From assembly GCA_030789695.1 (NCBI GenBank), contig CM061141.1, positions 275,597,871 to 275,661,870 on the forward strand: 64,000 nt of DNA, in the 5' to 3' direction. Source of the DNA: Scilla litardierei (taxonomy: Eukaryota > Streptophyta > Magnoliopsida > Asparagales > Asparagaceae). The notes beneath the pieces were generated by a model. The model worked only from the letters and a program-made list of their open reading frames with translations, made no database searches and had not been told where the DNA came from. The stretch's first letter is position 1; each line of letters begins with the position of its first letter. Made by a program: the position numbers and the translations under genes. Positions 23,516 through 55,275 of the stretch are shown one piece after another.

Positions 23516-26416
23516 TGTCACGCCCCGCTCCCCGGGATACCCGATAAGTACGAATCTGTATCAGGTATTCCCAGAGAGGCGGGTGCTACGAAGGAAATAC
23601 AAAATTACAAACACAAGCAGGTCCACTGCGCACTGCTGCGATAGTACATGTAGCATTCCAGACAACCCAAAACACAAGAGAACCAACAACTCAACCACTG
23701 ACCTATATAAATAAAACTGTTCATATACAACTTCCTTATACAAAACCATATACAATATACCCACATCTCAATAAGGTACAAAAACTCACATCTCACCAAA
23801 GTACAACACCACTCCATAGTCATCCACACTTCTCACAACCCGCAACTCCAACCAACGAGTCAAGGGGCCTCCAACTCAAAGAACCAACCTAAAAAGTCAA
23901 CGGTGGGGCACGTCAATGCGTGACCCAGTAGGAATTCCATATCTCAACTAGTCCTTACATGAAGCGTGGAAAGGGTGCACGTGAGCAGGCAGAGTGTATG
24001 TCATGGCGTAAACATCTACTATAGTAAATGAAGTAACAACTAAAGTTATGAACATGTGAAAGCGTGCACGTGCAACAAGCAAGGTGTACAATAATGGTAT
24101 ACCACATAAAAGAACCATAGTAAAGAAACACAAGTAAACAACACATATATTTACCATTGCTACAAGAATAATGAGGTTAATAATTAATTCATTGGTTAGC
24201 ATTTTGGAACCAGGGTAAATCGTAGAACGCTAAGGAGCCGGACTTCACCCAGGGTGGGTGAAAAGTGGTACCGCAACCAACGACACAAGCACTGGAGGGG
24301 CCTCTCGTAACTTCTCCGTACCCTAACGGAACAAGGTATGGGAGTGAGACAATCTCGGTTTTTCTGTCGGACGAACAGAGCAAACCATCAGTTACCGTCA
24401 TGGTGCATCACGAGTACACCAGCGGCCTCTCCAACCCTTTCTACTCCCCCATCCGGGAGTGACACAGCGGGTGAGCATTCATATCATCTGTCCGCTCCTT
24501 AACTCCTTTAATTTACCCGTGTTTCCCCCAAACCCCATTTCACCCTCCTTTAAGGGGACTTAGTCATTTTCATGAAACATAATACTTTCCATTTCTTTTC
24601 TTTCCACAGTTCATTACATATTTGGGACATGCATCGCCTTGTGCATTCCCTTTCTCATTTCACATAATATACATGAAACATATAACCATATTCGCATCAT
24701 CATTTTGCAAGCGCCAAGAACATAAACCACATGTCACCATGTAACAGAAAAGATTAAGAACTTGATGTCAAGTTTAACCTCAAAAAGAGAGCTTAAAACA
24801 ATATTCAAATCTTTCAGCTTGCTGGAAAAACAGAACAGTCAGATTAAGAAGCACAATTCTCCATAATTTTGTATCAAACATACACATAAAATATAAACGA
24901 AAGTTGTAGATATGGTTGTTCTGGATTCACCTATAAATTTTCATGCAGAAATATGAACTGGGTGATTTATGGTGAATTGTTTGGTGAAACCCTACGAATC
25001 TATTTTTAAGACAAATTTTAAGAACGGTAAAGATTACTAGTTTAAGACATGTTACAGTTAGAATCTCAAAAATGTGCACTCAGGCAAAGTTGTAGAAAAA
25101 GTTGTTATCTTTCCAACGAGACCAAGATCATCAATTTCTATGGAGTATACATCGACTGATCTACGTTTTGACAAACTATGTCCAGACTAGATGATATTCC
25201 GACATGTTGTAAAGATGGAATTATTAATCCGAATTACAGTCTGAATTAACAAATATTCTAAACATGAAAGGTATAGGTAACAGTCAAATCTTTAGGCCAT
25301 AAAAGTTTCAGAGCAAACTCATGTCTAGATTAGAAGGAATAAGCAGAACAATCAGCTTGTAAATCTGTCCAGAATTGCTCACCGCACAAAACCACCCAAA
25401 ACTCAGGATTGCTCACTGCGCACAACCATACAAAACTCAGGATTGCTCACCGCACACAACCATAAAAAATTCAGGATTGCTGACCGCACACAACCATACA
25501 AAACTTAGGATTGCTAACCGCACACAACCATAAAAAATTCAGGATTGCTGACCGCACACAACCATACAAAACTTAGGATTGCTCACCGCACACAACCATA
25601 CAAAACTCAGGATTGCTCAACACCCACAACCATACAAAATTCAGGATTGCTCACCGCATACAACCATACAGAACTCAGGATATATGAACGGTGCATGAGT
25701 TATCTTGGATAAATAAAGATGCAAGCTATGTTATGAAACTAAACATGCAACTCTAATACTAGTTAAGATGGAAATCCTACCTTAGGGGTGATGAGAGACA
25801 AGGGGTAGCCCAAATCCCTATGGCTCCTCCTCCTCCTTCAACACCTTCTCCTTCTTCCTTAAATCCTTCTCCTCCTCCTCAAGCTCCCAGAATGAGCAAC
25901 AGCGTCCAAAAAATGACCGAGATGCTACGGGAATGTGCAGAGTGAGGGTGGCGTAGCCCTATGGGTGCTCAGCCCCCCTAATGTCTAAGAGTGAGTTAGG
26001 GGAAGGGATGAATTCGGTCTGATATTTGGGGAGAGAGTGAGTGAATGAAACCTTCTTCTAATTCTTAGAGTAGCCACCTCATCTCCCTAAAATCCTCTTA
26101 GCATGCCACCAAGCCTAGGGTTAGGTAAGGATCAAGGATAACTTGACACATCAAAGGTGGAGGTGTCTCTTAGGAAAATATTAGGATTTTGTTTTTTTTA
26201 AAAATAACTATACCCGCTAAATACACATGCAATACTTACTCATCAAGACATTAGTATTCCACCCATATAAAATCATGTCATACAAATTATTAAAAAATAA
26301 TTTTTAGCTTTGACAAAATTAAATAAAATACACAAGGACTCCCAAAAATTTATACGCATATATATACGTCCAAGAATACGTATTAATACACGTATATGAA
26401 TTTTGGGGTCATTACA
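23516..26416 (-). repeat. Element H 3' LTR (2,901 bp)
   Basis: Starts TGTCACGCCCCGCTCC and ends GGTCATTACA on the plus strand. Contains nine units of a 34-bp minisatellite (25372-25677). It pairs with the split LTR at 27777/47623. ORFs within it are chance frames. Confidence 0.88.
25372..25677. repeat. 34-bp minisatellite, nine units (H 3' LTR)
   Basis: Tandem units of the form GGATTGCTCACCGCACACAA + CCATACAAAACTCA, nine copies with point differences. Alternating unit types (CTCA/TTCA/CTTA ends) suggest growth by two-unit blocks. Confidence 0.93.
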
Positions 26417-27776: not shown

Positions 27777-30057
27777 TGTCACGCCCCGCTCCCCGGGATA
27801 CCCGATAAGTACGAATCCGTATCAGGTATTCCCAGAGAGGCGGGTGCTACGAAGGAAATACAAAATTACAAACACAAGCAGGTCGACTATGCACTGCTGG
27901 GATAGTACATGTAGCATTCCAGACAACCCAAAACATAAGAGAACCAACAACTCAACCACTGATCTATATAAATAAAACTTTTCATATACAACTTCTTTAT
28001 ACAAAACCATATACAATATACCCACATCTCAATAAGGTACAAAAACTCACATCTCACCCAAGTACAACATCACTTCTAAGTCATCCACACTTCTCATAAC
28101 CCGCAACTCCAACCAACTGAGTCAAGGGGCCTCCAACTCAAAGAACCAACCTTAAAAGTCAATGGTAGGGCACGTCAACGCGTGACCCAGTAGGAATTCC
28201 ATATCTCAACTAGTCCTTACATGAAGTGTGGAAAGGGTGCACGTGAGCAGGCAGAGTGTATGTCATGGCGTAAACATCTACTGTAGTAAATGAAGTAGCA
28301 ACTATAGTTATGAACAAGTCAAAGCGTGCACGTGCAACAGGCAAGGTGTACAACAATGGTATACAACATAAAAGAACCGTAGTAAAGAAACATAAGTAAA
28401 CAACGCATACATTTACCATTGCTACAAGAATAATGAGGTTAATAATTAATTCATTGGTTAGAATTTTGGAACCCGGGTAAATCGTAGAACGCTAAGGAGC
28501 CGGACTTTACCCAGGGTGGGTGAAAAGGGGTACCGCAACCAGCGACAAGAGCACTGGAGGGGCCTCTCGTAACTCTCCGTACCCGAACGGAACAAGGTAT
28601 GGGAGTGAGACAATCTCGGTTTTTCTGTCGGACGAACGGAGCAAATCATCAGTTACCGTCATGGTGCATCACGAGTACACCAGCGGCCTCTCTAACCCTT
28701 TCAACTCCCCCTTCCGGGAGTGACACAGTGGGTGAGAATTCAAATCATCTGTCCGCTCCTTAACTCCTTTAATTTACCCGTGTTTCCCCCAAACCCCATT
28801 TCACCCTCCTTTAAGAGGACTTAGTCATTTTCATTAAACATAATACTTTCTATTTCTTTTCTTTCCACACTTCATCACATATTTGGGACATGCATCGCCC
28901 TATGCATTCCCTTTCTCATTTCACATAATATACATGAAACATATAACCATATTCGCATCATCATTTTGCATGTGCCAAGAACATAAAACACATGTCACCA
29001 TGTAACAGAAAAGATTAAGAACTTGATGTCAAGTTTAACCTCAAAAAGAGAGCTTAAAACAACATTCAAATCTTTCAGCTTGCTGGAAAAACAGAGCAGT
29101 CAGATTAAGAAGCACATTTCTCCATAATTTTGTATCAAACATACACATACAATATAAACGAAAGTTGTAGATATGTTGTTCTGGATTCACCTATAAATTT
29201 GCATGCAGAAATATGAACTGGGTGATTTATGGTGAATTGTTTAGTGAGACCTGACGAATCTGTTTTTAAGACAGATTTTAAGAACTGTAAAGATTACTAG
29301 TTTAAGACATGTTACAGTTAGAATCTCAAAAATGTGCACTCAGGTAAAGTTGTAGAAAAAGTTATTATCTTTCCAACGAGACCAAGATCATCAATTTCTA
29401 TGGAGTATACATGGACTGATCTACGTTTTGCCAAACTATGTCCAGACTAGATGAAATTCCGACATGTTGTAAAGATGGATTTATTAATCCTAATTACAAT
29501 ATGAATTAACAAATATTCTAAACATGAAAGTTATAGGTAACAGTCAAATCTTTAGGCCATAAAAGTTTCAGAGCAAACTCAAGTCTAGATTAGAAGGACT
29601 AAGCAGAACAATCAGCATGTAAATCTGTCCAGAATTGCTCTTCCCACAAAACCACCCAAAACTCAGGATTGCTCACCGCGCACAACCATACAAAACTCAG
29701 GATTGCTCACCGCACCCAACCATACAAAACTCAGGATTGCTCACCGTACACAACTATACAAAACTCAGGATATATGAACGGTGCATGATTTATCTTGGAT
29801 AAATAAAGATGCAAGCTTTCTTATGAAACTAAACATGCAACTCTAATACTAGTTGAGATGAAAATCCTACCTTGGGGGTGTTGAGAGACAAGGGGGTAGC
29901 CCAAATCCTTATGGCTCCTCCGTCTTCAAACCCTTCTCCTTCTTCCTTAAATCCTTCTTCTCCTCCTCAAGCTCCCAGAATGAGAAACAGTGTCTAAACA
30001 ATGATCAGGATGGTACGAGAATGTGCAGAGTGATGGTGGCATAGCCCTACGGGTGCT
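27777..30057 (-). repeat. Element H 5' LTR, first part (interrupted by I)
   Basis: Collinear with 23516-25968. It stops at GGGTGCT (TSD GTGCT of element I) and resumes at 47177 with CAGCCCCCCTAATG, exactly as in the unbroken LTR at 25960-25985. Confidence 0.9.
29632..29767. repeat. 34-bp minisatellite, four units (H 5' LTR)
   Basis: Same unit as at 25372 but only four copies. The five-unit difference (170 bp) accounts for nearly all of the length difference between the two H LTRs. Confidence 0.93.
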
Positions 30058-30355
30058 TGATCACTCCTTATTTTACACCTTTTTCCGCATGTTTGCATGC
30101 CATTTAGATCGCCCAAATCATGTTTCTCACGATATATCGACGATATTGCGATACTTTTCACGATTTGTTGTTTTTGTCGCATTTCAGGTGATTTGGCGCG
30201 ATTTGGAATGATCTCGAGATGCGCTTACTCTAGACGGTCACCGACGACTTCCCCGAGGGGTATTTTGCTGATTGGAGAGGAGCGGAAGAAGAATGGACGT
30301 CGCAGGAGCGACGAGGAGGCCAAAACAAGCAGATTGGGCATTTTTTGTGTCCCAC

Positions 30356-30735
30356 TCGGCCGAGTGGAGGAGCCACTCGGCCGACCAGTGAGACACTGCT
30401 CGGCCGACCAGTTCAGACACGATTTCTATGTGCACTCGACCGAGCACCGAAGACCACATCGGCCGAGTGACGATACCACGTCCGCCTGAGTGGCGCCCAG
30501 ACGAAGCCCTTCCAAAACATCGAAGTTACTGTTTTTCGGTTGCCTGAACTTCAGAAGACCCACTCGGCCGAGTGGTAAATCCCGTCCGCCCGAGTGCAGT
30601 GAAGTCATCGGCCGAGTGACGACAACTCACTCAGCCGAGCCGCCCTCGAAGTAGAAACCCCTGAAGGCCCTGACTTACTGGAAAATTACAGGGTTTCTCA
30701 CTCGGCCAAGCGACTTTTGTCACTCGGCCGAGTGC
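30356..30735. repeat. CTCGGCCGAG palindrome cluster in element I U3 (copies 40378-40757, 45650-46030)
   Basis: More than ten copies of CACTCGGCCGAGTG or one-base variants are spread over about 380 bp, ending about 85 bp before the TATA-like box. Several variants in LTR-a (CTCGACCGAG, CTCAGCCGAG, CTCGGCCAAG) are single CpG transitions of the motif. Confidence 0.92.
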
Positions 30736-31213
30736 GATGCGCTGCCTGTAGCGAAAACTGCGGAAAACAGGCTGTGCAGGGGCATTTTGGTCACGATTTT
30801 TGGACGATTTTTGGGGCTATTTAAACCCTGTTTTTACCCTAGTTTGGATAGCTCTCTCTTAGATTTTTTGCAGTTTTTTTAGATTAGTTTTTTTAGCTTT
30901 ATTCTTGTGATTGGAGAAGGAGCAAAACTTGGATTTTTGTTGGATTAATTGAAGAACTACATTGGTTTGCATCACTTTTCCTTAAAAATTCTATTTTTAT
31001 TGTTTATATCATTGTTGTGATGAATTCTATTGCTTATCTCAACGATTATTTTTGTGATCTTGCTATGATTTGTGAGTAGTCTCCACGTCTTGGGGCGTGG
31101 GGATGAACCCTACAAGCCCACTTTCATATTTGTGATGAATTGGTAGAAATTGAGCTAGAATTGCTATTAGAGATTAGATTAGGATCGATTTACTACGGAT
31201 TGCTAGGTATTCA

Positions 31214-31518
31214 TATCAATTGGGATTTGCAAGAGATTGGATCCCAATTTGATAGGAAGCCCTAGAATTCCGAATTGGGTTGGAGTCGGATTTTTCGAAG
31301 TATCGGTTTGCAAGAGATTGGACCGATACTAGGATTCCCGGTTGCAATTCTATACCGATACCCGTTTGCAAGAGATTGGACGGGTAGGAACTATCCTAAT
31401 CTAGATCGTGGACCGAGTTTGCAAGAGATTTGGGCTCGGTGCGCGATTGGACGATGATGTTGATCCTAATGCTAGCTTCCCTAGGGTAGGGTTTGCAAGA
31501 GATTGGACCCGACCCTAG
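31214..31518 (+). other. five stem-loops with constant loop and variable stems (R/U5); copies at 41233-41537 and 46508-46812
   Basis: The 14-mer TTGCAAGAGATTGG occurs at 31227, 31308, 31366, 31418 (as TTGCAAGAGATTTGG) and 31493. Each is flanked by a different pair of complementary arms: TATCAATTGGGAT/ATCCCAATTTGATA, AGTATCGGT/ACCGATACT, TACCCGT/ACGGGTA, ACCGAGT/GCTCGGT (one G-U), CTAGGGTAGGGT/ACCCGACCCTAG (one mismatch). They sit between the promoter and the PBS, so they are in the 5' leader of the genomic RNA. All three LTRs keep them. A sixth plain hairpin (CCACG/CGTGG) lies near 31082. Confidence 0.9.
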
Positions 31519-31883
31519 GATAGCTATAGACCGGCAACAGCGCGAGAGTGTGAGCTTGGTTCTACATTCAGTTGCAACTAGTTCATCCGAATTCACATTC
31601 TAGCAATTTTGATACCGATGGACCACATTTATGAAGTACGGTGTGTAGCGGGGATTCCCCATTCCCTAGACGTTCTTTATTTGATTTGATATTTCGCCCA
31701 TTTGTCTGACGATTGTGACAGGATCGCCAAAGGCAAATTTCTCTTCTTAAATAGCCAGGTTGATCGGAGCAAGCACAGTCATTCGTCCTCCCTGTGTTCG
31801 ATATCCCGCTCGCTGCTACACCGTGCACTTGCGGTAAAACTACAACCGTTCTTTTGGGTCACGTCCCGGAGCGATCAAGTTTT

Positions 31884-31901
31884 TGGCGCCGTTGCCGGGG
31901 A
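31884..31901 (+). promoter_or_regulatory. Element I primer-binding site (tRNA-Asp), first
   Basis: TGGCGCCGTTGCCGGGGA, perfect 18-nt complement to the 3' end of plant tRNA-Asp (GTC), 6 nt after LTR-a. tRNA-Asp priming is usual for Athila-lineage elements. Confidence 0.92.
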
Positions 31902-32035
31902 GGCGATTGCGTTTGATTCTTTCTCACCCTAACTATTCTTTTTATTATTATTATTATCATTATTTTTATTTCTTATTTCTTACCTAACCCTTCCACGGTA
32001 CTACTCATTTCTTTGAAACTCTGTTTCCCCTGTGC

Positions 32036-34734
32036 ATGTACACGAGATCTACGGCGGACCCTGAAGCTTTATTATTTGATCCCGAGATCGAACGTACCGC
32101 GCGGAGACTTAGAGCGGAAAGAAGACAAGATCCGGAAGGGAGGTATATGACCAACCCAGAAACTCATGAAGAATTGGCGGCAAGGATGGCGAGGATAATT
32201 TCTATTCGCGATAGGCTTCGGCCTAAGACCTCTTCTAATACCTCGTCCATTGCCGTGCCGCAGTTGGCGGCTGACAAGAACTTCGAGCTAAAGACTGGAT
32301 TGGTGGTTTTGATGCAACAAGACCCAATTCATGGGAACGCCCATGAGAACCCCCACTACCACATCCAATTATCCTTGTCAAAGTGCGCCACATTCCAGAT
32401 GCCGGGGTCTCCATCGATGCTATCAGACTGCGTCTCTTCCCCTTCACGCTTAAGGACAAGGCACTCTATTGGTTGAGGACGCAGGCTGACGGAGTCTTCA
32501 CCACTTGGGACGAGTTGGCGAGTGCATTTATTGATAAGTTCTATCCGCCATCCAAGACGGTGAAGATCCGGAGCGCTCTCATGTCCTTCAAGCAAGGACC
32601 ACAGGAGACGCTCTATGAAGCTTGGGAGCGTTTTAAGGATTTACAGCATCAATGCCCGCACCACAGTATAGAAGATTGGGAGCTAGTTCATAGCTTCTAC
32701 AACGGTCTCCAACCAGGGACCAAACAAATTATTGATGCCGCGGAGAATGGTGCTATCTTGTCAAAGACTCCCGAGGAAGCTACGGCCCTAATTGAGGAGA
32801 TGGCCTCAAATAACCAACAATGGGGCGATGAGCGAGGACACCCTACGTCCTCCTTAAAGCCAACTAGCATCTACGAGGCAAAGGCCGTAGCGGAGCTTAC
32901 GAGCAAGTTTGATTCTCTCCACAAGGTAGTGGAGAGATTGGAGAAGTTCATCACGGAGCCCCAAGGGACCCCTTCCACCTCCGCGCCGACGAACCAAATG
33001 TGCGATTGGCAAGACCAATCTTAAGCCATGTACTCAGGAGGAGAGCAAGTAGAAGGATCCTTGGAGCAAGTACAATATGTTACGGGAAACCAAGGATATT
33101 GGGCCAATCCAGCCACAAGAAAACATCCCGGATTCTCTTACGCCAACAATGAAGGAGCTTTGAACCCGCCACAACAACCACCTCAACAAGCTCGACCACC
33201 ACCACCCCAACAACAATACTATCCACCGAGGGGGCCTCCACAACAAAACTTTCAACCAAAGCAACAAGTTCCACCATATAGGCCTCCCGGATACAACCAA
33301 GGGTGGAGGAATCAAAATCAAAACCCTCCACAAGCTCCACAACGATCCGACTTCGAAACTAGAGTGGAGGCATTCATGGTCGAGCAAAATAAGGTAAATG
33401 CTAGCTTGAAGGCGGGGCAAGACTCCCTTAATACCGTTGTGGCTCAAATATCGGAGCAATTGGCGTTGCTCAATCGGAACACTCAAAGATTGCCGGCGCA
33501 ACCGGAGCAAAACCCACGGGGCAACACGGGCCACATCAATGCCGTAGTTGCCGTTACTACTAGAGGCGGGAAGGACACCACCCCCGCCATGATTCCTATT
33601 GAGGAGCCCGTGGAGGAAAGCTTGGAGCCAATTGAGCCGATAGTTGAAGTTGAAAAAGAGAAGGAGCCACAAGACAAAGAGAAATCTAGAGCGGAGCAAT
33701 TGATTGAGGAAAGGCGCTTCATGCCACCGGTCCCATTCCCCCAAAGGCTCGCTAGAGTGAAAATGGAGAAAAGGCTAGCAAAATTTCTCGAGTACCTAAG
33801 AGGAGTTAGCCTTAACATTCCCTTCCTTGACGCCATCGTCGAGATCCCCACGTATGCTAAATTTTTGAAGGACTTGATTTCGGGGAGAAAAAGGAAGGAG
33901 AAGATCATGCTAGCCGAGGAGGGCTCTTGGTTCACCAAGAGAGAGAAGGAGCCGGCAAAATTTAAAGATCCGGGGAGTTTTCGGATTCCTTGCACTTTGG
34001 GCGGCGTTCCTCTTCAAAAGGCGTTGGTTGATCTTGGGGCTAGTGTGAGCCTCATGCCTCTCTCCATGTTCTTAAGGCTAAACACCGGGACGAAGTTGAA
34101 ACCCACCGACATGCGCATTCAATTAGCCGATGGACGGATAACAAGGCCGGTAGGGATTGCCGAAGACATCCCACTTCAAGTCCCAGGTGGAATATGCTTG
34201 CCATGTGACTTCGTGATCATGGACGTTAAGGAGGAGGGAGACACTTCATTGATACTTGGACGCCCGTTCCTAGTCACCACCGGAGTCATCGTCGACGTGC
34301 ACGAAGGTACCCTAACTTTAAACGTCGGAAACATCGAGGTGGAGCTCCACATTCCTAAGGCCATGAAGCACATGCCTTATCATGAGGAACTAGACTACAT
34401 GGACCTCCTTGATGAGGTGATTGAAGAGGCGATCCCTCACTCAATTGGCGCTCTTTTCGATGAAGATTTTGAGGAAGGCCCGAATTTAGGCCAAGATGAG
34501 AAGAAAAATGATTCCCCCGACCTCTCCGCTGAAAATGATGAAGGCGACGCTGATGTCGCAAGGATTCGAGAGCTCTGCAAGCTCGCGAAACCAAAGTCTC
34601 CGAAGAAAGCTCCGCCGGCACGGAAATCGGCATCACCGGCAAAACCGTTGACCGGAGCAAATGCTAGCTTGGGGGAGCCTCCCCCCAACACTATTCGAGA
34701 CGAGAGACCACCGCGGGAGAACACTACGCCGTAA
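32036..34734 (+). pseudogene. Element I gag-protease polyprotein (one frameshift, one stop)
   Basis: ATG at 32036 opens MYTRSTADPEALLF. The gag matrix/capsid side runs to HENPHYHIQ, then a frameshift near 32375 moves to the frame of DAGVSIDAIRLRLFPFTLKDKALYWL, the Retrotrans_gag domain with FIDKFYPPSKTVKIRS. A TAA at 33022-33024 stops it; the same frame resumes at 33028 and stays open to 34734. There follow a Gln/Pro-rich linker (33170-33350), a coiled coil, and an aspartic protease domain with LVDLGASVSLMPLSM (about 34025), LADGRITRPVG and SLILGRPFLVTTG. DLGA instead of DTGA is usual in Athila relatives. After a Lys/Pro/Ala tail it ends at TTP-stop. RT, RNase H and integrase, expected next, are missing. 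Confidence 0.88.
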
Positions 34735-35995
34735 CTTCCCAATCCAAGCGTTCTCCCCGGAAAGTTTGATGGGTGCATCTCATATGCACCGAACATCCCG
34801 CATTGATTGAAAATTATAGGGGGTCGAGCTCACGACCTTAAACGAGCGCTTGTCAGGAGGCAACCCGACGGTTTTTGCTTTATTTTTACTTTTTCTTTAT
34901 TTTCGTTTTAGAAATTTTTAGTGTTTTGAGTCGTTAGCCCAAAAATTTTTAGTGTTTTGAGTCGCGCCCATCATGAGGAGGATGAACGAGTCGACGAGGA
35001 GCGCCCCAAGAAGGCGCTCGATGCTTAGGAGGAAGATGAAATCGATTGGAGGAAGAAAGACGGAGTTTAGAGCCAAAACAAAGACAAACAACAGAACACA
35101 AGGCTCACTCGGCCGAGTATACTAGTCACTCGGCCGAGTACACAAGTTCGTCCGGCCGAGCCGCTCATGAACGAGGGAAGTCTGATGTACCCAACTCTCT
35201 GTTTATTTTCTTGATTTCGATATAACTGCTACTCGGCCGAGTATATATATTCACTCGGCCGAGTGAAACGGATACCCTCCTAGGGCGAGTCATGCCGAGT
35301 AGCTTGAGTCACTCGGCCGAATGGACTTACTCCACTCGGCCGAGGCTGGCAAAGCCACTCGGCCGAAGCGATAGCGGGGAGGAAATTTTCATTGGCCTCG
35401 CTCGGCCGAGTGACCACGTCACTCGGCCGAGTCGTAACTTTTTTATATAAAGGGCGAGGGGGGGCGCATTTTTCGAAACGCAAAACCCCCAAAACACCCG
35501 CGCCCCTTCAGCTCCCTCGCTCGATCCTCGCTCGATCGCGCCCCCACTCGCCCGATCGCCGCTGCCACGCCGCCGCTCGGCCCGCCACCGCCGGCCGAAC
35601 ACCCCCGTCGCCTCGCCCGAGTCGCCGCCGGCGGCCGTGCCTCCGGTCACCTCCGGTACCCCTATTTCGCCTATTTTTGCCTCTTTTTGTGTATTTTTCA
35701 AGGATCCGTGTATTAATCGAACCCCTAACCCAAATCAATTCCTATATCTATCTATTATACCCCTAATGCTCCATACATTTTGATTATTACTCACTGATAT
35801 CGCCTTTTCATGCGCAGGTTGCTTATTGGAGCTTAGGGGAGCCCAGGGGAGCTTCTACGGGCTAATCCGGACTTCGCGGAGGCGCTGACTTCGCACGCTT
35901 CCACTGCTTAGCACTCGCGGCGTGTCGGGGTACACTCTTTCCACTCTTTTACACGCACCGCACTTTTTTCACTTTTCGGCGCGCTCGGGGCCGAT
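34735..35995 (+). other. Element I gag-to-env spacer with palindrome cluster
   Basis: Begins with the GTCGAGCTCACGACCTTAAA and GAGGCAACCCG motifs that in Athila elements follow pol, so pol has been deleted just before. 35099-35430 has the same CTCGGCCGAG palindromes as U3, followed by TATATAAAGG (35444-35453). 35660-35818 has plausible splice signals (CCG/GTACCC donor near 35657, TTTTCATGCGCAG acceptor ending 35818), so a leader intron upstream of the env-position ORF is possible. No other ORF. Confidence 0.72.
35099..35453 (+). promoter_or_regulatory. internal promoter-like module: CTCGGCCGAG cluster plus TATA box
   Basis: At least eight palindromes (for example at 35105, 35129, 35232, 35252, 35310, 35400, 35421) end about 15 bp before TATATAAAGG. 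This copies the U3 layout, some 540 bp upstream of the env-position ORF start. It could drive a subgenomic mRNA. Confidence 0.6.
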
Positions 35996-38116
35996 ATGCC
36001 GCCCCGGACACGGCCGCGGTCGAAGAGAGCTTCCGCCAAGCGGAAGCGGTCGGATGATGCCGGCCCCTCCCACGAGTTGGAGGACTCTCCTCCACCGTCC
36101 CCCACACACTCCGCACACCCTGCACAGCCTGCAGGCCCCGCACACCTCACACAGCCTGCAGTGCACCCACAGCCCGCACAGCCTCTCCCTGCCGACCCAC
36201 AGCCACCACCACCGGCTCCACTGGTCGGGCCGCTCGGGATTACGTTCCGAGACGATGCACACCGCGCCGTCTTCGAGTGTATCTCCCAGCACTCGATCGT
36301 ACCCTCCAGGTTTGCACACCTCGCTGACCTAGGACGCCTGTGGGTACTAGAGGGGATGCTCACGTTGTACGACAACGTGGGCTGGCGAGATTTTCTGCAG
36401 GTGTCGGCGGATACTTTTACCCGCCCGACACTTGAGGTTTTGAGTTCGATCGCCCGGACCGACGAGGGATGCTCATTCCGGTTCATGGATCGAGAGTGCC
36501 AGGTCACTCTCGATATGATGAGAGCATTCTTCTCGTGGCCCGCTGTCCCCGGTGCCGATCGCGGTTACAGCCCCACTCATATCCCCCCACCTTCCTTCGA
36601 CGCCGGTGCCTTCTGGGCCCGGATTACGGGTCACCACGCTGCCTTTGACCCTAGTAGGGCCAAGGCCTCGGCCATGGTCCACCCCTGCCTCCGCATAGCC
36701 CAGCGCCTCATGGCGACTACCTTTTTGGCCAGATATGAGCCGGGCACGATGTCTACGCCAGAGCTCTACATGCTCTATGCGATGACACGTCCCAGAGCTC
36801 TATCTAGGGATGGAGACGAGCTTGTCCCCGCCGTCATGATCGACATTGCGGCTTGGTTTTTGGACCGCATCATTGTATCGGTGGGCGCTCGCTCACTGAT
36901 ATGCTGCGGCGGTCTGATCACCTTGCTTACCATGATGACCGGCGAGGACCTACCTGACGACTTGTGACGCGTCCCGGGCCCCACTTCTCTGTCGATAGAC
37001 GTTATGGCCCGGATGAAGATGCTTCGTCCGCATGGTGAGCGTCACTGGGTCTGGTTGCACGGCCCTTACGGTGCCGACTGCATGATTCTCTCGAGCCCTG
37101 CTCGGACTCAGATTGCACCAGCCCACGTCGACTGGCTCCCTGCGATGGATGTTCTCATCCCCGCTGCCTACGTGCTCGAGGCCGAGGAGGCCGAGCAGGC
37201 CCACGCTGCCCACGCTGCCCAGGCTGCCCCCGCAGACCCTGCTGCACACCCTACCGAGCCTGCTACCGACCCTGTTGACCCAGTGGCCCCTCAGCCCATG
37301 CCTGATGTTTCCGCTGCTCCTGACACTTCTGTCCCCACTTCTGTCAGTGTCACGAGTACCTCAGCTGAGCCCACTTCCACCACTTCCACCACTTCCGCGG
37401 CTGTCACCACTGTCACCACCACACCCACTACCACCGCTGGCCCTCTGTCTGCTGAGCCGATTTCCTCTGCCCCACCCGAGCGCCCGCCGACGGTAGTCGA
37501 GTGCGAAGAGCCCTCTGTCTCCACTGCCGCTGTATTTTCCGAGAGTGTCGTGGCGTCTGTCCACACTTCTGTGCCACTGACCTCTCTGGCCGCCTCGCTG
37601 CCACTTTTGCACACTTCTTTCGCTGCCGCTGCCTCCACTTCTCACCAGCCGGTGTCCCGGCCTCACACTGAGGCCAGGCCCACATTTGCAGGCACGGCAC
37701 CTTTTGTCCCCTTCCCTGCTGAGCCCGTTACATACTCTACTCGCGTGCGCCAGCCTCGCCCTGCACAGCCTAGACCGGTGCGTCCCTCTGCACCACCCCC
37801 GCCCGACACTGTACTGCAGAGCATACGTGCTCTTGAGTTGGCGGTGAGTGGTCTTAGAGGTGACCTTAGGACCCTATCCTCCACCGTCTCTGCGATGGCT
37901 GGACGCTTCGAGCTGATCCCCCAGATCCATTACTGTCTCACCCAGGTTCTGGAGCGTCTCCCGCGCGTACCCCCACCCACCCAGCAGGTTCCCACACACA
38001 CTTCCACACACACTAGACCTGCTTCCACTTCCACGCCCACCCCAGCTCAGCAGCCTACACCACCACCTCCACCACCTCCGCCTCAGGACGGAGACGGCGC
38101 AGCAGCACCTTCTTAG
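35996..38116 (+). pseudogene. Element I env-position ORF (ATHILA ORF-like), copy 1, one stop
   Basis: Starts at ATG 35996 (MPPRTRPRSKRASAKRKRS, a basic, possibly nuclear-localising N-terminus). A Pro/His-rich stretch follows, then the ATHILA-type domain: RFAHLADLGRLWVLEGML, VGWRDFLQVSADTFTRPTLE, MRAFFSWPAVPGADRGY, RLMATTFLARYEPGTMSTPE and VMIDIAAWFLDRIIVSVGAR. A TGA at 36965-36967 interrupts the frame; copy 2 has CGA there. It continues as RRVPGPTSLSIDVMARMKML, then a long Pro/Ser/Thr-rich segment (37190-37790), a short helical block LRGDLRTLSSTVSAMAG and a poly-Pro end. Function of this family is unknown; no convincing transmembrane segment or signal peptide is seen, so calling it an envelope is only positional. 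Confidence 0.82.
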
Positions 38117-40079
38117 GCACCCTTGATGCCTTGATTTATTCCTGCCGTTGTGCTGCCCGTTTCTGCTGGGTCCTGTTACACTTTTTGTCCACCCCCCTCC
38201 CCTCACTTATTATGGTATTCTCTTTTTGATCATATCTTCTTATATCTATTTTTGGAGAGATAGGAGAGTTTTTGGTGACACTTATATCTATGTATCGCTC
38301 CTATCTGTGCATGCATCATGTCCGCATCATATTTTCATTTCTTTATTTTACCTTTTTCTTTTCATTTTTCCATGCATGCATCCTCTCTTGCCCCTCCCAT
38401 CGCTTGTCTCTCGGTGTGCCACACTTTGCACATTGAGGACACTGTGCCATTTAGCTTGGGGGAGTGAGTTCTCACATTCTTTTTCGATTTGCCACCTTTA
38501 TTTTTAGTTTTTCACACCATTTTTTCGCCTTTGCACTTATTTTTCATCATTTTTCATTTATTTTTCCATGCATCACGTTTTTCTTATTTTCATGTGTGCC
38601 GCATTGCATAGTTTTATTTTTCCTTCATCTTTATTTCTTTCTTTTTCATCTCATGCTAGAGATGACTTTTCTGTGATGATAATGACGTTGGATTTAGCTT
38701 ATTCTATATGCATGCTATATTTGTCATGTCTTAGGTTTTATTTCAGATATCAGATGCTATGACTTGCTTTGCATTTAGAATAGTAACCCACACCTTTTTC
38801 CGCATGAAAATGGATGAAATTTTATTATTAGCTGAGTCTGAATATTCATATGTATGCTATCACAGAAAACACACCAAGATTCACGCATTGAATGCTTATA
38901 TCTGGAGTACTGACTTTCTTTTCCTATATCACTTCTATATGCATAAATTGTACACTTCACTTCAGGATGATTGAATGATGTTAGCTATGATAAATCTGGA
39001 TTAGTTAGCTTTTTTGTGACCTAAACTGAGTAGAATAGATTACCCTGCTGAAGTTGTCGTGCATGTCTTATAGAGTGAACCGAGAGTTATATTTATTTCT
39101 TTCTCCACAAATCTTGAACATCATTTCTCTACTCTTCAAATCATTGGTGAATCTCCCCTTAGTGATTCTATTTTATGGCATTTTCCCCCGCTACTAATTC
39201 CTAGCTCCAAATCTCTTATTCTATAAAAAAAGAGAAAGAGAGAGAGAAAAACATTCTTGTACATCATTATCTCTCTCTGAGTTGGGATCGTTGTGTATAT
39301 ATTGCTTATTGAAAAAAAAAACAAAAACAAAAAAAACAAAAAAAAAGAGAGGAAAAATTCCTGAATCAAAGATCCCGTCTCACTTTCTTTCTTTCTTCTT
39401 TCTTTTCGTTGCTTTTGGAGCTATATGTATAAAAAATGGGGATGTAAATATTTTTTATGCCACCACGCTTATAGATAAGCTTGGGGGAGGGGATCCATTG
39501 ATGTGTGAGAGAGTGGCTACTTGACATCGCACGACAACCTAGGCCAAGTAATATTCTATACTCGGTGAGATTATTTTTAGTTTTACGAAATCCAGAAATC
39601 TAAGCCTAACGTTCATTTCATGAAATCCATACTTTTCTATTCTCTCTATTCTATAGTGTGATACTCTTATACTCCTGATAGAAAGCGTTCAATTGAAAAG
39701 TGTGTGATCTGTGATTTGTATACCTCTTTAAATGATTCAGACGACGTTAATTTTAAAATTATTCCGTTTTTCATGATTATATCGTTGTTCGTGGGTTTTC
39801 TATTTCTATTTTCACTATTATACTACGATATCGAAATAAAATTCTTTGACATGTATTTTTCATTCAGTGCATGCTATAAGAGTAAGTGAAACCCACGTCC
39901 TGAGAAAATGTTCTAGCATCCTACCTCTTCGCTTCTTTCTCTCTTCTTTATTTTCATTTCGTTTTCATTCTTCTTCGTTTTTCATTTTTTTTTTTCGCCG
40001 CTTTCGTTTTCCAAATCCACCGGGTTCGCCTTTTACTTATCTTCCTCGAGGACGAGTAAGAGGCAAGCTTGGGGGATTT
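38117..40079 (+). other. Element I 3' untranslated region, long copy
   Basis: T-rich and non-coding. Holds TTGAGGACACTGTGCCATTT followed by AGCTTGGGGGA (38453), a second AGCTTGGGGGA (39478) and the terminal PPT (40066-40076) joined to LTR-b. An A-rich microsatellite-like stretch lies at 39310-39350. Just before the PPT is CTTCCTCGAGGACGAG, a motif also found before the D PPT. Confidence 0.75.
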
Positions 40080-41896
40080 TGATCACTCCTTATTTTACAC
40101 CTTTTTTCCGCATATTTGCATGCCATTTAGATCGCCCAAATCATGTTTTTCACGATATATCGACGATATTGCGATGCTTTTCACGATTTGTTGTTTTTGT
40201 CGCATTTCAGGTGATTTGGCCTGATTTGGAGTGATCTCGAGATGCGCTTACTCTAGACGGCCACCGACGACCTCCCCGAGGGGTATTTTGCTGATGGAGA
40301 GGAGCGGAAGAAGAATGGACGTCACAGGAGCGAAGAGGAGGCCAAAAGAAGCAGATTGGGCATTTTTTGTGTCCCACTCGGCCGAGTGGAGGAGACACTC
40401 GGCCGACCAGCGAGACACTGCTCGGCCGACCAGTTCAGACACGATTTCTATGTGCACTCGGCCGAGCACCGAAGACCACATCGGCCGAGTGACGATACCA
40501 CGTCCGCCCGAGTGGCGCCCAGACGAAGCCCTTCCAAAACATCGAAGTTACTGTTTTCGGCTGCCTGAACTTCAGAAGACCCACTCGGCCGAGTGGTAAA
40601 TCCCGTCCGCCCGAGTGCAGTGAAGTCATCGGCCGAGTGACGACAACTCACTCGGCCGAGCCGCCCCCGAAGTAGAGACCCCTGAAGGCCCTGACTTACC
40701 GGAAAATTACAGGGTTTCTCACTCGGCCGAGCGACTTTTGTGACTCGGCCGAGTGCGATGCGCTGCCTGTAGCGAAAACTGCGGAAAACAGGCTGTGCAG
40801 GGGCATTTTGGTCACGATTTTTGGACGATTTTTGGGGCTATTTAAACCCTGTTTTTACCCTAGTTTGCAGAGCTCTCTCTTAGATTTTTTGCAGTTTTTT
40901 TAGATTAGTTTTTAGCTTTATTCTTGTGATTGGAGAAGGAGCAAAACTTGGATTTTTGTTGGATTAATTGAAGAACTTCATTGGTTTGCATCTCTTTTCC
41001 TTAAAAATTCTATTTTTATTGTTTATATCATTGTTGTGATGAATTCTATTGCTTATCTCAACGATTATTTTTGTGATCTTGCTATGATTTGTGAGTAGTC
41101 TCCACGTCTTGGGGCGTGGGGATGAACCCTACAAGCCCACTTTCATATTTGTAATGAATTGGTAGAAATTGAGCTAGAATTGCTATTAGAGATTAGATTA
41201 GGATCGATTTACTAAGGATTGCTAGGTATTCATATCAATTGGGATTTGCAAGAGATTGGATCCCAATTTGATAGGAAGCCCTAGAATTCCGAATTGGGTT
41301 GGAGTCGGATTTTTCGAAGTATCGGTTTGCAAGAGATTGGACCGATACTAGGATTCCCGGTTGCAATTCTATACCGATACCCGTTTGCAAGAGATTGGAC
41401 GGGTAGGAACTATCCTAATCTAGATCGTGGACCGAGTTTGCAAGAGATTTGGGCTCGGTGCGCGATTGGACGATGATGTTGATCCTAATGCTAGCTTCCC
41501 TAGGGTAGGGTTTGCAAGAGATTGGACCCGACCCTAGGATAGCTATAGACCGGCAACAGCGCGAGAGCGTGAGCTTGGTTCTACATTCAGTTGCAACTAG
41601 TTCATCCGAATTCACATTCTAGCAATTTTGATACCGATGGACCACATTTATGAAGTACGGTGTGTAGCGGGGATTCCCCATTCCCTAGACGTTCTTTATT
41701 TGATTTGATATTTCGCCCATTTGTCTAACGATTGTGACAGGATCGCCAAAGGCAAATTTCTCTTCTTAAATAGCCAGGTTGATCGGAGCAAGCACAGTCA
41801 TTCGTCCTCCCTGTGTTCGATATCCCGCTCGCTGCTACACCGTGCACTTGCGGTAAAACTACAACCGTTCTTTTGGGTCACGTCCCGGAGCGATCA
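40080..41896 (+). repeat. Element I LTR-b, middle LTR (1,817 bp)
   Basis: Same LTR in direct orientation between the two internal regions. It has private changes not in a or c (for example GGCCTGATTTGG where a and c read GGCGCGATTTGG, and GTCTAACG where a and c read GTCTGACG). So a and c look like the original pair. Confidence 0.93.
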
Positions 41897-41902
41897 AGTT
41901 TT

Positions 41903-41920
41903 TGGCGCCGTTGCCGGGGA
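41903..41920 (+). promoter_or_regulatory. Element I primer-binding site, second, at deletion junction
   Basis: Same 18-mer after LTR-b. Its last bases CCGGGGA run straight into TTACGGGTCACCACG, which in the long copy lies in the env-position ORF at about 36625, preceded there by GCCCGGA. CCGG/GGA is shared at the joint, so the deletion used 4-5 bases of microhomology. Confidence 0.92.
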
Positions 41921-41921
41921 T

Positions 41922-43404
41922 TACGGGTCACCACGCTGCCTTTGACCCTAGTAGGGCCAAGGCCTCGGCCATTGTCCACCCCTGCCTCCGCATAGCCCAT
42001 CGCCTCATGGCGACCACCTTTTTGGCCAGATATGAGCCGGGCACGATGTCTACGCCAGAGCTCTACATGCTCTATGCGATGACACGTCCCAGAGCTCTAT
42101 CTAGGGATGGAGACGAGCTTGTCCCCGTCGTCGTGATCGACATTGCGGCTTGGTTTTTGGACCGCATCATTGTATCGGTGGGCGCTCGCTCACCGATATG
42201 CTGCGGCGGTCTGATCACCTTGCTTACCATGATGACCGGCGAGGACCTACCTGACGACTTGCGACGCGTCCCGGGCCCCACTTCTCTGTCGATAGACGTT
42301 ATGGCCCGGATGAAGATGCTTCGTCCGCATGGTGAGCGTCACTGGGTCTGGTTGCACGGCCCTTACGGTGCCGACTACATGATTCTCCCGAGCCCTGCTC
42401 GGACTCAGATTGCACCAGCCCACATCGACTGGCTCCCTGCGATGGATGTTCTCATCCCCGTTGCCTACGTGCTCGAGGCCGAGGAGGCCGACCAGGCCCA
42501 CGCCGCCCACGCTGCCCAGGCTGCCCCCGCAGACCCTGCTGCACACCCTGCCGAGCCTGCTGCCGACCCTGTTGACCCAGTGGCCCCTCAGCCTATTCCT
42601 GATGTTTCTGCCGCTCCTGACACCTCTGTCCCCACTTCTGTCAGTGTCACGAGTACCTCCGCTGAGCCCACTTCCACCACTTCCGCGGCTGTCACCACTG
42701 TCACCACCACACCCACTACCACCGCTGGCCCTCTGTCTGCTGAGCCGATTTCCTCTGCCCCACCCGAGCGCCTGCCGACCGTAGTCGAGTGCAGAGAGCC
42801 CTCTGTCTCCACTGCCGCTGTATTTTTCGAGAGTGTCGTGGCGTCTGTCCACACTTCTGTGCCACTGACCTCTCTGGCCGCCTCGCTGCCACTTTTGCAC
42901 ACTTCTTTCGCTGCCGCTGCCTCCACTTCTCACCAGCCGGTGTCCCGGCCTCACACTGAGGCCAGGCCCACATTTGCAGGCACGGCACCTTTTGTCCCCT
43001 TCCCTGCTGAGCCCGTTACATACTCTACTCGCGTGCGCCAGCCTCGCCCTGCACAGCCTAGACCGGTGCGTCCCTCTGCACCACCCCCGCCCGACACTGT
43101 ACTGCAGAGCATACGTGCTCTTGAGTTGGCGGTGAGTGGTCTTAGAGGTGACCTTAGGACCCTGTCCTCCACCGTCTCTGCGATGGCTGGACGCTTCGAG
43201 CTGATCCCCCAGATCCATTACTGTCTCACCCAGGTTCTGGAGCGTCTCCCGCGCGTACCCCCACCCACCCAGCAGGTTCCCACACACACTTCCACACACA
43301 CTAGACCTGCTTCCACTTCCACGCCCACCCCAGCTCAGCAGCCTACACCACCACCTCCACCACCTCCGCCTCAGGACGGAGACGGCGCAGCACCACCTTC
43401 TTAG
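41922..43404 (+). pseudogene. Element I env-position ORF, copy 2 (5'-truncated, stop-free)
   Basis: Begins directly after the second PBS with ITGHHAAFDPSRAKASA and stays open to the stop at 43404. It keeps CGA (DDLRRVPG) where copy 1 has TGA. The N-terminal 210 codons or so, and any authentic ATG, are lost. It lacks a 9-bp repeat unit (one TSTTS block shorter) in the Pro/Ser/Thr segment relative to copy 1. The first in-frame ATG is at MATTFLARY. Confidence 0.85.
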
Positions 43405-45351: not shown

Positions 45352-47171
45352 TGATCACTCCTTATTTTACACCTTTTTTCCGCATGTTTGCATGCCATTT
45401 AGATCGCCCAAATCATGTTTCTCATGATATATCGACGATATTGCGATACTTTTCACGATTTGTTGTTTTTGTCGCATTTCAGGTGATTTGGCGCGATTTG
45501 GAGTGATCTCGAGATGCGCTTACTCTAGACGGTCACCGACGACCTCCCCGAGGGGTATTTTGCTGATTGGAGAGGAGCGGAAGAAGAATGGACGTCGCAG
45601 GAGCGACGAGGAGGCCAAAACAAGCAGATTGGGCATTTTTTGTGTCCCACTCGGCCGAGTGGAGAAGCCACTCGGCCGACCAGCGAGACACTGCTCGGCC
45701 GACCAGTTCAGACACGATTTCTATGTGCACTCGGCCGAGCACCGAAGACCACATCGGCCGAGTGACGATACCACGTCCGCCCGAGTGGCGCCCAGACAAA
45801 GCCCTTCCAAAACATCGAAGTTACTGTTTTTCGGCTGCCTGAACTTCAGAAGACCCACTCGGCCGAGTGGTAAATCCCGTCCGCCCGAGTGCAGTGAAGT
45901 CATCGGCCGAGTGACGACAACTCACTCGGCCGAGCCGCCCCCGAAGTAGAAACCCCTGAAGGCCCTGACTTATTGAAAAATTACAGGGTTTCTCACTCGG
46001 CCGAGCGACTTTTGTCACTCGGCCGAGTGCGATGCGCTGCCTGTAGCGAAAACTGCGGAAAACAGGCTGTGCAGGGGCATTTTGGTCACAATTTTTGGAC
46101 GATTTTTGGGGCTATTTAAACCCTGTTTTTACCCTAGTTTGGAGAGCTCTCTCTTAGATTTTTTGCAGTTTTTTTAGATTAGTTTTTTAGCTTTATTCTT
46201 GTGATTGGAGAAGGAGCAAAACTTGGATTTTTGTTGGATTAATTGAAGAACTACATTGGTTTGCATCTCTTTTCTTTAAAAATTCTATTTTTATTGTTTA
46301 TATCATTGTTGTGATGAATTCTATTGCTTATCTCAACGATTATTTTTGTGATCTTGCTATGATTTGTGAGTAGTCTCCACGTCTTGGGGCGTGGGGATGA
46401 ACCCTACAAGCCCACTTTCATATTTGTGATGAATTGGTAGAAATTGAGCTAGAATTGCTATTAGAGATTAGATTAGGATCGATTTACTAAGGATTGCTAG
46501 GTATTCATATCAATTGGGATTTGCAAGAGATTGGATCCCAATTTGATAGGAAGCCCTAGAATTCCGAATTGGGTTGGAGTCGGATTTTTCGAAGTATCGG
46601 TTTGCAAGAGATTGGACCGATACTAGGATTCCCGGTTGCAATTCTATACCGATACCCGTTTGCAAGAGATTGGACGGGTAGGAACTATCCTAATCTAGAT
46701 CGTGGACCGAGTTTGCAAGAGATTTGGGCTCGGTGCGCGATTGGACGATGATGTTGATCCTAATGCTAGCTTCCCTAGGGTAGGGTTTGCAAGAGATTGG
46801 ACCCGACCCTAGGATAGCTATAGACCGGCAACAGCGCGAGAGCGTGAGCTTGGTTCTACATTCAGTTGCAACTAGTTCATCCGAATTCACATTCTAGCAA
46901 TTTTGATACCGATGGACCACATTTATGAAGTACGGTGTGTAGCGGGGATTCCCCATTCCCTAGACGTTCTTTATTTGATTTGATATTTCGCCCATTTGTC
47001 TGACGATTGTGACAGGATCGCCAAAGGCAAATTTCTCTTCTTAAATAGCCAGGTTGATCGGAGCAAGCACAGTCATTCGTCCTCCCTGTGTTCGATATCC
47101 CGCTCGCTGCTACACCGTGCACTTGCGGTAAAACTACAACCGTTCTTTTGGGTCACGTCCCGGAGCGATCA
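45352..47171 (+). repeat. Element I LTR-c, terminal LTR (1,820 bp)
   Basis: Preceded by PPT AGCTTGGGGGATT and followed by TSD GTGCT. Carries the same palindrome cluster (45650-46030) and hairpin series (46508-46812). Confidence 0.93.
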
Positions 47172-47176
47172 GTGCT

Positions 47177-47623
47177 CAGCCCCCCTAATGTCTAAGAGTG
47201 AGTTAGGGGAAGGGATGAATTCGGTCTGATCTTTGGGGAGAGAGTGAGTGAATGAAACCTTCTTCTAATTCTTAGAGTAGCCACCTCATCTCCCTAAAAT
47301 CCTCTTAGCATGCCACCAAGCCTAGGGTTAGGTAAGGATCAAGGATAACTTGTCACACCATAGGTGAAGGTGTCCCTTAGGAAAATATTAGGATTTTGTT
47401 TTTAAAAAAAATAACTATACCCACTAAATACACATGCAATACTTACTTATCAAGACATTAGCATTCCACCCATATAAAATCATGTCATACAAATTATTAA
47501 AAAATAATTTTTATCTTTGACAAAATTAAGTAAAATACATAAGGACTCCCAAAAATTTATATGCATATATATACGTCCAAGAATATGTATTAATACACGT
47601 ATATGAATTTTGGGGTCATTACA
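47177..47623 (-). repeat. Element H 5' LTR, second part
   Basis: Continuation of the LTR interrupted at 30057, matching 25969-26416. Ends GGTCATTACA, followed by CTTTT, the mutated TSD, and then element C gag. Confidence 0.9.
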
Positions 47624-54959: not shown

Positions 54960-55275
54960 CCTTTAATAGCACACCTTTAATAGCGCTTGCCAATTATAAG
55001 CGATGTTATTTAGAGGCACATATAATAGACAACGCTTCTTTTTGCAAGCGCTGTTAAAGGTCGGAGAATAGACATCGCTTCTTTCTGCAAGCGCTGTTAA
55101 AGGTCGGATAATAGACATCGCTTCTTTCTGCAATCGCTGTTTATTAGAGGCACACATAATATACATCGCCTCTTTTTGCAAGCGCTGTTAAAGGTCAGAT
55201 AATAAACAGTGCTTCTTTTTGCAAGCGCTATTATAGGTTTGACAATAGACAACGTTTGTCTTTTTGCCAGCGTTG
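54960..55275. repeat. CACTA subterminal repeats (about 40-45 bp period)
   Basis: Repeated GCAAGCGCTGTTAAAGGTC and AATAGACATCGCTTCTTT blocks, at least five imperfect units, immediately inside the left terminus. The words TTTAATAGCGCTTGC and GCGCTGTTAAAGG pair with one another, so the array is also self-complementary. Confidence 0.75.

What the first reader, a model, noticed from the sequence alone, without database searches (positions are those of the whole stretch)
31214..31518. Five stem-loops with an invariant loop and mutually different, self-complementary stems in the leader of element I
TTGCAAGAGATTGG occurs five times in 300 bp, each time exactly between two arms complementary to each other but unlike the arms of the other four. 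Pairing is kept by coordinated differences: this is what conserved RNA secondary structure with a sequence-specific loop looks like, not simple tandem duplication. The series lies between promoter and PBS, so it would be in the genomic RNA 5' leader, where packaging, dimerisation or translation-control signals sit. It recurs unchanged in LTR-b and LTR-c. I know of no described plant LTR element with such an array.
Basis: partly seen in the sequence, partly recalled or inferred. Interest (0 to 1): 0.87.

Follow-up and report, generated by a model that had tools for sequence, protein, structure and literature searches.

The report
Five-hairpin RNA array in plant retrotransposon
A very abundant family of plant retrotransposons carries, in the part of its DNA that should become the start of its RNA, a row of five small hairpins with nearly the same cap and ever-changing but still matching stems, which points to a conserved RNA signal, perhaps one for packaging its own RNA.

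Summary
Five hairpins with a shared apex and unlike self-complementary stems lie at 31210-31520 in an Athila (Ty3/Gypsy) LTR and recur in LTR-b and LTR-c. The 3.68-Gb genome holds 33,960 exact H2-H3 cap pairs; 100 of 101 loci examined keep all five hairpins at near-constant spacing although arrays differ by up to 30%. Stems change about as fast as spacers (0.857 against 0.846 conserved) but stay paired: 95.1% of cells against 78.5 +/- 2.1% in a tree-aware null, 121 double-change cells against 31. The "invariant 14-nt loop" is itself structured: a UG bulge and a three-pair stem capped by GAGA (a GNRA-type tetraloop), whose top pair covaries (A-U, C-G, U-G). The array lies between a TATA-like motif and the primer binding site, in elements without visible reverse transcriptase and in one RT-bearing relative. 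No Rfam family matches; my paper searches found no description. Best reading: a multivalent signal in the genomic-RNA leader, most likely for packaging by Gag. The structure is well supported; packaging is inferred. Pair by pair, only 3 of 62 structure pairs are significant, none when all column pairs are searched; strand evidence is weak.

The parts
30058..31877 (+). LTR-a (TGATCA...GATCA) carrying the array
   Evidence: self-BLAST; ends and 5-bp target-site duplication GTGCT at 30053-30057 and 47172-47176 read
30818..30827 (+). TATA-like motif TATTTAAACC, putative promoter
   Evidence: read; TATTTAA[AG][CT]C 378-409 bases before the H1 cap in 47 of 63 loci; TATTTAACCC there in 4 of 8 named loci that lack it, nothing similar in the other 4 (L031, L049, L063, L068)
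31210..31258 (+). Hairpin H1 (modelled core 31219-31248)
   Evidence: stem ATTGGGAT/ATCCCAAT, outer part with a bulge
31299..31330 (+). Hairpin H2
   Evidence: AGTATCGGT/ACCGATACT; pair 31304/31325 covaries, E 0.013 among structure pairs
31359..31386 (+). Hairpin H3
   Evidence: TACCCGT/ACGGGTA; pair 31362/31383 covaries, E 0.013 among structure pairs
31406..31446 (+). Hairpin H4 (core 31412-31440; one extra T in the cap of the window's copies)
31479..31520 (+). Hairpin H5; mini-stem pair 31498/31503 covaries
   Evidence: E 6e-5 among 62 structure pairs
31884..31901 (+). Primer binding site TGGCGCCGTTGCCGGGGA (complement of plant tRNA-Asp 3' end: recalled, not tested)
   Evidence: read; found at up to 3 mismatches 646-665 bases after the start of the H1 cap in 28 of 63 loci; why the other 35 lack it was not worked out one by one, some are 3' LTRs
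32036..34734 (+). gag and protease reading frames (Retrotrans_gag, Asp_protease_2)
35996..36967 (+). ATHILA ORF-1 family reading frame (PF03078), lineage marker
40080..41896 (+). LTR-b with the same array
   Evidence: hairpins at 41238-41267, 41319-41348, 41377-41406, 41430-41460, 41504-41533
45352..47171 (+). LTR-c with the same array
   Evidence: hairpins at 46513-46542, 46594-46623, 46652-46681, 46705-46735, 46779-46808

Best explanation
The array is a conserved RNA structure in the 5' leader of the genomic RNA of a plant Athila lineage: five separate hairpins, each an interchangeable stem presenting nearly the same cap (U.G pair, UG bulge on the 5' side, three-pair mini-stem, GAGA tetraloop) at intervals of about 80, 58, 53 and 73 bases. 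Near-identical caps on unlike stems, repeated at near-fixed spacing, suit multivalent recognition by one RNA-binding protein. I think this is most likely the element's own Gag, so that full-length RNA is selected and nucleates particle assembly; elements without pol would keep the array in order to be packaged in trans. Shown: the structure, its covariation, its steady place and number. Inferred: that it is transcribed, that a protein binds it, that this protein is Gag.
For: Structure: all 35 hairpins of the window's LTR-a and six relatives: 93.1% of 319 cells paired against 70.3% in shuffles (0 of 500 as high), 69 double-change cells against 19.6 (0 of 500), slid controls 14-53% paired; a first count on 27 of these 35 gave 94.9%, and RNAalifold on those 27 gives the same fold unprompted. 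37 arrays that differ from each other by more than 5%: 95.1% paired and 121 double-change cells against 78.5% and 31 in 200 tree-aware simulations, whose maxima are 83.5% and 80. 16 branch events with both sides changed and the pair kept over 62 pairs, against 8 in 14 slid control sets together. Cap columns 0.965 conserved, stems 0.857, spacers 0.846. Number and spacing: 100 of 101 loci have all five, among them 40 of 40 of the two last array fetches; 17,084 + 16,876 exact H2-H3 cap pairs in the genome, reversed-pattern control 0. Place: TATA-like motif upstream and PBS downstream at similar spacing in many relatives. Shared by elements with gag and protease but no RT seen (window, L036) and by one with RT, RNase H and integrase (L064-L071-L070). 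BARE2, a plant element that cannot express Gag, is packaged, which its authors find consistent with its conserved dimerisation and packaging signals (PMC3735527, passages).
Against: No binding, transcript or packaging data. A first covariation test on 50 unbalanced sequences found nothing significant, and its best pair (E 0.43) is not in the structure. In the balanced test 3 of 62 pairs pass E < 0.05 among structure pairs and none over all column pairs (best 0.065); further pair types show no excess there (57 against 56), and the number of pairs with a double change shows none (7 against 6.6). The mini-stem is marginal in energy (pair probability about 0.55-0.62 in the window's leader; means of 0.29-0.57 per hairpin in 40 relatives), and for two C-G variants folded alone the energy model prefers another fold with a six-base loop. 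Many stems are imperfect: the five pairs next to the cap are all standard in 151 of 200 hairpins. No CCHC zinc knuckle was found in the internal region of the window element or of L036. Arrays shared by RT-bearing and RT-less elements also follow from common descent, and only one RT-bearing element was shown.
Confidence: 0.45

Rival explanations
1. Translation control: the hairpins organise a leader of about 1.2 kb with upstream AUGs so that ribosomes shunt, reinitiate or enter internally to reach gag.
For: The leader from an assumed start at 30848 to the gag ATG is 1,188 nt with 9 upstream ATGs and only short upstream frames, 3-23 codons. Long leaders with short upstream frames and secondary structure control translation in plant pararetroviruses (PMC5902531, start of the abstract in the listing).
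Against: Shunting as I recall it needs one large stem next to a short upstream frame; here there are five small separate hairpins with one shared cap, which suits recognition by a factor better than a physical obstacle.
Confidence: 0.2
2. Binding site for a host RNA-binding protein (nuclear export, stability, stress-granule sorting or silencing escape) rather than for Gag.
For: Same structural evidence. Athila biology touches a host RNA-binding protein: Athila6 siRNA854 potentially regulates the mRNA of UBP1b (PMC3276544, passages).
Against: No candidate protein that binds this cap; nothing in the data separates a host protein from Gag.
Confidence: 0.2
3. RNA-RNA contact: dimerisation through the UUGCAA palindrome of the caps, or docking of GAGA tetraloops into helix receptors that fold the leader.
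For: UUGCAA in H1-H3 is self-complementary; GAGA fits the GNRA class, known for tertiary contacts (recalled).
Against: The palindrome is lost in 31 of 37 H4 (loci partly selected for that) and in 17 of 37 H5, while all 37 H5 keep the mini-stem pair. No receptor motif was looked for.
Confidence: 0.1
4. DNA-level sites: five inverted repeats bound as DNA, for instance by transcription regulators.
For: Strand evidence for RNA is weak: changes leading to G.U 44, to A.C 25 (p 0.03), but slid controls also lean to G.U, 216 to 168.
Against: Stems change freely while pairing is kept, which a DNA-binding protein would not need; a U.G pair is nearly fixed in all five hairpins (36-37 of 37 each), on the other strand an A.C mismatch.
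Confidence: 0.05

Closest known systems
Packaging-signal-mediated assembly of RNA viruses (MS2, parechovirus, hepatitis B virus; PMC6281560, PMC7612645)
   Same: Several hairpins share one recognition motif on otherwise unlike stems; in MS2 the motif combines the apical loop with a bulge on the 5' side (PMC6281560 passages); HBV signals carry RGAG in their loops (PMC7612645 abstract) and the window's caps read AGAG.
   Different: There the hairpins are dispersed through the genome; here five are clustered in the leader at near-fixed spacing. No protein contact is known here. 30 of 37 H4 caps in the compared arrays read CGAG, not RGAG (loci partly selected for that).
Retroviral psi packaging hairpins and BARE1/BARE2 packaging and dimerisation signals in plants
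   Same: Place in the 5' leader between promoter and gag (retroviruses: recalled); signals shared by elements with and without full coding capacity (BARE: PMC3735527 passages).
   Different: I know of no described leader with five copies of one bulged GNRA-type cap on covarying stems (recalled; my searches are listed under Tried and rejected).
Athila lineage of plant Ty3/Gypsy elements
   Same: ATHILA ORF-1 family (PF03078), gag, protease, long LTRs; PBS type as recalled.
   Different: No such array was found described for Athila in my searches; the Diaspora paper's main text has no 'hairpin', 'stem' or 'leader' (PMC1142308, term search).

Membership tests
Athila (Ty3/Gypsy) LTR retrotransposon | ATHILA ORF-1 domain | tested here: met
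   PF03078 E 6.2e-8, 32.3 bits, cut-off 20.2
Athila (Ty3/Gypsy) LTR retrotransposon | LTRs with TG...CA ends, target-site duplication, PBS | tested here: met
   the tRNA itself not tested
Athila (Ty3/Gypsy) LTR retrotransposon | gag and protease | tested here: met
   PF03732 2e-21; PF13650 5e-6
Athila (Ty3/Gypsy) LTR retrotransposon | reverse transcriptase, RNase H, integrase | tested here: not met
   Window element: no [YF]xDD motif in three forward frames; of the frames of 120 aa or more, five were scanned with Pfam and none is pol. Relative L064-L071-L070: RVT_1 3.6e-34, RT_RNaseH, rve. So the window element is filed as a non-autonomous relative, not a complete Athila.
Conserved RNA structure | base pairs kept through changes on both sides beyond what relatedness gives | tested here: met
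   structure-wide statistics; pair by pair only 3 of 62, none over all columns
Packaging-signal array | several hairpins with one shared apical motif on variable stems | tested here: met
Packaging-signal array | direct contact with Gag or capsid protein | not testable with these tools
   needs binding or crosslinking
Packaging-signal array | sites dispersed along the genome | tested here: not met
   model R1 finds the hairpins only in the three LTR arrays of the window
Kissing-loop dimer initiation site | conserved palindrome in the loop | tested here: not met
   UUGCAA: H1 and H2 position N6 A in 37 of 37, H3 35 of 37, H5 20 of 37, H4 6 of 37 (H4 partly selected)
Known Rfam family | match at gathering score | tested here: not met
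   none in the leader; 8 hits below gathering score at E up to 10
Plain tandem repeat | head-to-tail copies including the arms | tested here: not met
   TRF lists no array at 31214-31518

The most novel reading that the evidence does not exclude
A plant LTR retrotransposon lineage with tens of thousands of LTRs in its genome uses a virus-like assembly code: a fixed row of five bulged GNRA-type hairpins that its Gag reads by their caps, kept alike in RT-bearing and RT-less partners so that one Gag pool packages both.
Probability: 0.35. Interest if true: 0.85.

Novelty: new variant of a known kind. Interest (0 to 1): 0.68.

Why it matters
How plant retrotransposon Gag picks its own RNA out of the cell's messages, and how elements without pol are mobilised by others, is known for only a few families (recalled; the BARE paper says fairly little is known beyond BARE). 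A compact array with five near-identical caps, tens of thousands of natural variants in one genome and compensatory changes gives a ready substrate to test it: the natural variation already shows which positions matter. If a host protein binds it instead, the array would be a handle on how plants handle retrotransposon RNA.

Tried and rejected
Covariation on 50 unbalanced arrays: near-identical subfamilies dominate, best pair E 0.43 and not in the structure; rejected as a test, kept as a warning. Outer pairs of H1 were first written one column out of register (letters such as C/T and A/A) because relatives differ by an indel there; they are not. In one search two added outer pairs, chosen after seeing the top list, passed E < 0.05: 31213/31254 (misregistered) and 31479/31520 (G.T in 29 of 37 rows, C/A, not a pair, in 5); I do not count either. 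The first pair count used 27 of 35 hairpins, leaving out the window's H4 and several with blemished caps; I repeated it with all 35, which lowered the paired cells from 94.9 to 93.1%. A look in viral contigs for TTTGCAAGAGATTGGAC gave 3 lone matches, about chance by my own estimate. Rfam at lax threshold: nothing credible. Looking for an RT in the L040 element landed in its ATHILA frame, so only one RT-bearing relative is shown. The stretch downstream of L050 (L069) lies beyond what looks like a 3' LTR and was not used. Papers: motif letters in full text, 0 papers; four terms together, 0 papers; searches gave no description of such an array in the listings seen and in the passages read of PMC1142308, PMC3735527, PMC6281560, PMC3276544, PMC11728184 and the abstract of PMC7612645. 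The library lacks most subscription papers, so 'not described' is limited to these searches.

Ascertainment: L001-L030 came by similarity to the array (all 99-100%), L031-L032 and L039-L068 by one exact cap, L072-L111 by H4 and H5 caps (H4 required to differ from the window's), so conservation of H4's cap there is selected; H1-H3 caps, the stems, and H5's two variable cap positions in L072-L111 were not. L072-L111 were picked by me, 40 of the 100 rows that one search listed, all on contig C1, for variety. The 101 loci include the window's LTR-a itself (L001), many near-identical copies and both LTRs of some elements; rows dropped before that count: L002, L003, L036, L038 (places already held), L033-L035 (viral contigs), L069-L071 (no array). 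Caps were allowed up to 4 mismatches of 15; L062 failed, and L068 has only four at up to 3 mismatches. 37 of the 100 remain at under 95% identity. Neighbouring caps may exchange sequence by conversion, which could copy a whole cap and mimic compensatory change in the mini-stem; the U-G and U-A variants in H5 and a G-U variant in H3 (L077, L095) argue against this as the only cause.

Full report
What is there. The window lies in a 3.68-Gb genome, judged to be a plant's from its Athila elements (G000). At 30058-47171 sits a composite Athila-type element, LTR-internal-LTR-internal-LTR, flanked by the 5-bp duplication GTGCT. The internal part encodes Retrotrans_gag, an aspartic protease and an ATHILA ORF-1 protein; no reverse transcriptase motif and no pol frame was seen among those examined. 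The three LTRs differ by 1.1-1.65%. The hairpins begin 383 bases after a TATA-like motif (30818-30827) and end 364 bases before the PBS (31884-31901).

The observation. Four exact and one near-exact copy of TTGCAAGAGATTGG, each between arms that match each other and not the arms of the others. The array folds with z -6.2. In a fold of the whole putative leader, 30848-32035, the lower stems have pair probabilities near 1 except the two outermost pairs taken for H3 (0.14 and 0.61), and the mini-stems 0.55-0.62.

Relatives. A search by similarity gave 40 scored copies at 99-100%, useless for covariation. Patterns that demand other stem letters opened up the diversity: only 2 places with Y..R beside the cap, 1,722 with W..W, where 99 of the 100 rows listed are complementary (A..T or T..A) and one is not. 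The 30 loci cut from the latter and the 2 from the former show the same hairpins at the same spacing, with gaps in L062 (three found) and L068 (four found at up to 3 mismatches); those whose BLAST rows I printed match LTR-a. A pattern for changed H4 caps followed by H5 has 22,613 hits, the H2-H3 pair with two perfect caps 33,960; reversed controls 0 in both. The array is thus present at about 34,000 places or more, presumably LTRs. Of 101 loci 100 keep five hairpins.

The cap is structured. In diverged relatives H4 and H5 read CAC-GAGA-GUG or CAU-GAGA-GUG where the window reads CAA-GAGA-UUG. RNAalifold on 27 hairpins returns a stem of eight pairs ending in U.G, a UG bulge, a three-pair mini-stem and a GAGA tetraloop. 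In 37 arrays the H5 pair 31498/31503 is A-T 20, C-G 13, T-G 3, T-A 1: all 37 paired, E 6e-5 among structure pairs. Apart from the two partners of that top pair the cap hardly changes: each of its other positions has its usual base in 33 to 37 of 37 rows, the base that pairs below the U.G being A or G.

Is it more than relatedness? I wrote an R-scape-like null: parsimony substitutions of each branch dealt out at random over columns on the same tree. For 62 pairs and 37 sequences: paired cells 95.1% against 78.5 +/- 2.1 (maximum of 200: 83.5); double-change cells 121 against 31 +/- 14 (maximum 80); pairs with a double change 19 against 10.3 (maximum 17); further pair types 57 against 56, no excess. 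Three of 62 pairs pass E < 0.05 as structure pairs; over all column pairs the best, again 31498/31503, has E 0.065. Branch events in which both sides change and the pair is kept: 16, against 8 in fourteen slid copies of the structure together. Exchanging 3' arms among 40 loci within the same hairpin lowers the number of hairpins with five standard pairs next to the cap from 151 to 122 of 200 (maximum 133 in 500), among all hairpins to 29 (maximum 46). Within the array, cap columns are 0.965 conserved, stems 0.857 and spacers 0.846. The structure as a whole is well beyond relatedness, while most single pairs are not significant.

DNA or RNA, and which strand. Free change of stem sequence with kept pairing speaks for a folded single strand. 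The near-fixed U.G pair below the bulge and an excess of G.U over A.C (44 to 25, p 0.03) point to the + strand, but slid controls lean the same way (216 to 168), so this is weak.

Function. The array is kept in elements without RT seen (window; L036) and in the contiguous stretch L064-L071-L070, where an LTR with the array and a PBS-like site is followed by RT, RNase H and integrase. Near-identical caps on interchangeable stems at near-fixed spacing are what a multivalent protein-binding array would look like; Gag is the natural candidate because the signal lies in the leader and is shared by helper-type and dependent elements, as for BARE1 and BARE2. The comparison with virus packaging signals is an analogy of layout, not evidence of kinship. 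Translation control, a host protein and RNA-RNA contacts remain possible.

Verdict.

Noticed in passing
30353-30734; 40375-40755; 45648-46029; 35106-35558: The palindrome CACTCGGCCGAGTG and near copies recur 9 times in U3 of each LTR and 10 times in a second cluster inside the element (37 matches at up to 3 mismatches, 1.3 expected). The inner cluster lies before the ATHILA frame and might mark a second promoter.
   Followed up: partly
30058-47171: Composite LTR-internal-LTR-internal-LTR unit: 36621-41896 and 41918-47171 are 97% identical; one GTGCT duplication flanks the whole, so unequal recombination within or between elements is likely.
   Followed up: partly
25965-26416 and 47172-47623; 23516-25511 and 27777-29771: The Athila unit is nested in another LTR-like repeat: the part interrupted at 30057 continues at 47172.
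   Followed up: no
32564-32669, minus strand: Rfam snoR71 (C/D snoRNA) reaches its gathering score (42.6 against 40) antisense within gag; either a family that includes retrotransposon sequence or a snoRNA-like stretch.
   Followed up: no
31454-31489: Three upstream ATGs in one frame lie between H4 and H5, and that frame ends inside H5's stem; some relatives lack two of them (a row, C1:3676002).
   Followed up: no
55010-55278: Tandem array of a 43-base unit containing TTTTTGCAAGCGCTGTTAAAGG; not looked at further.
   Followed up: no
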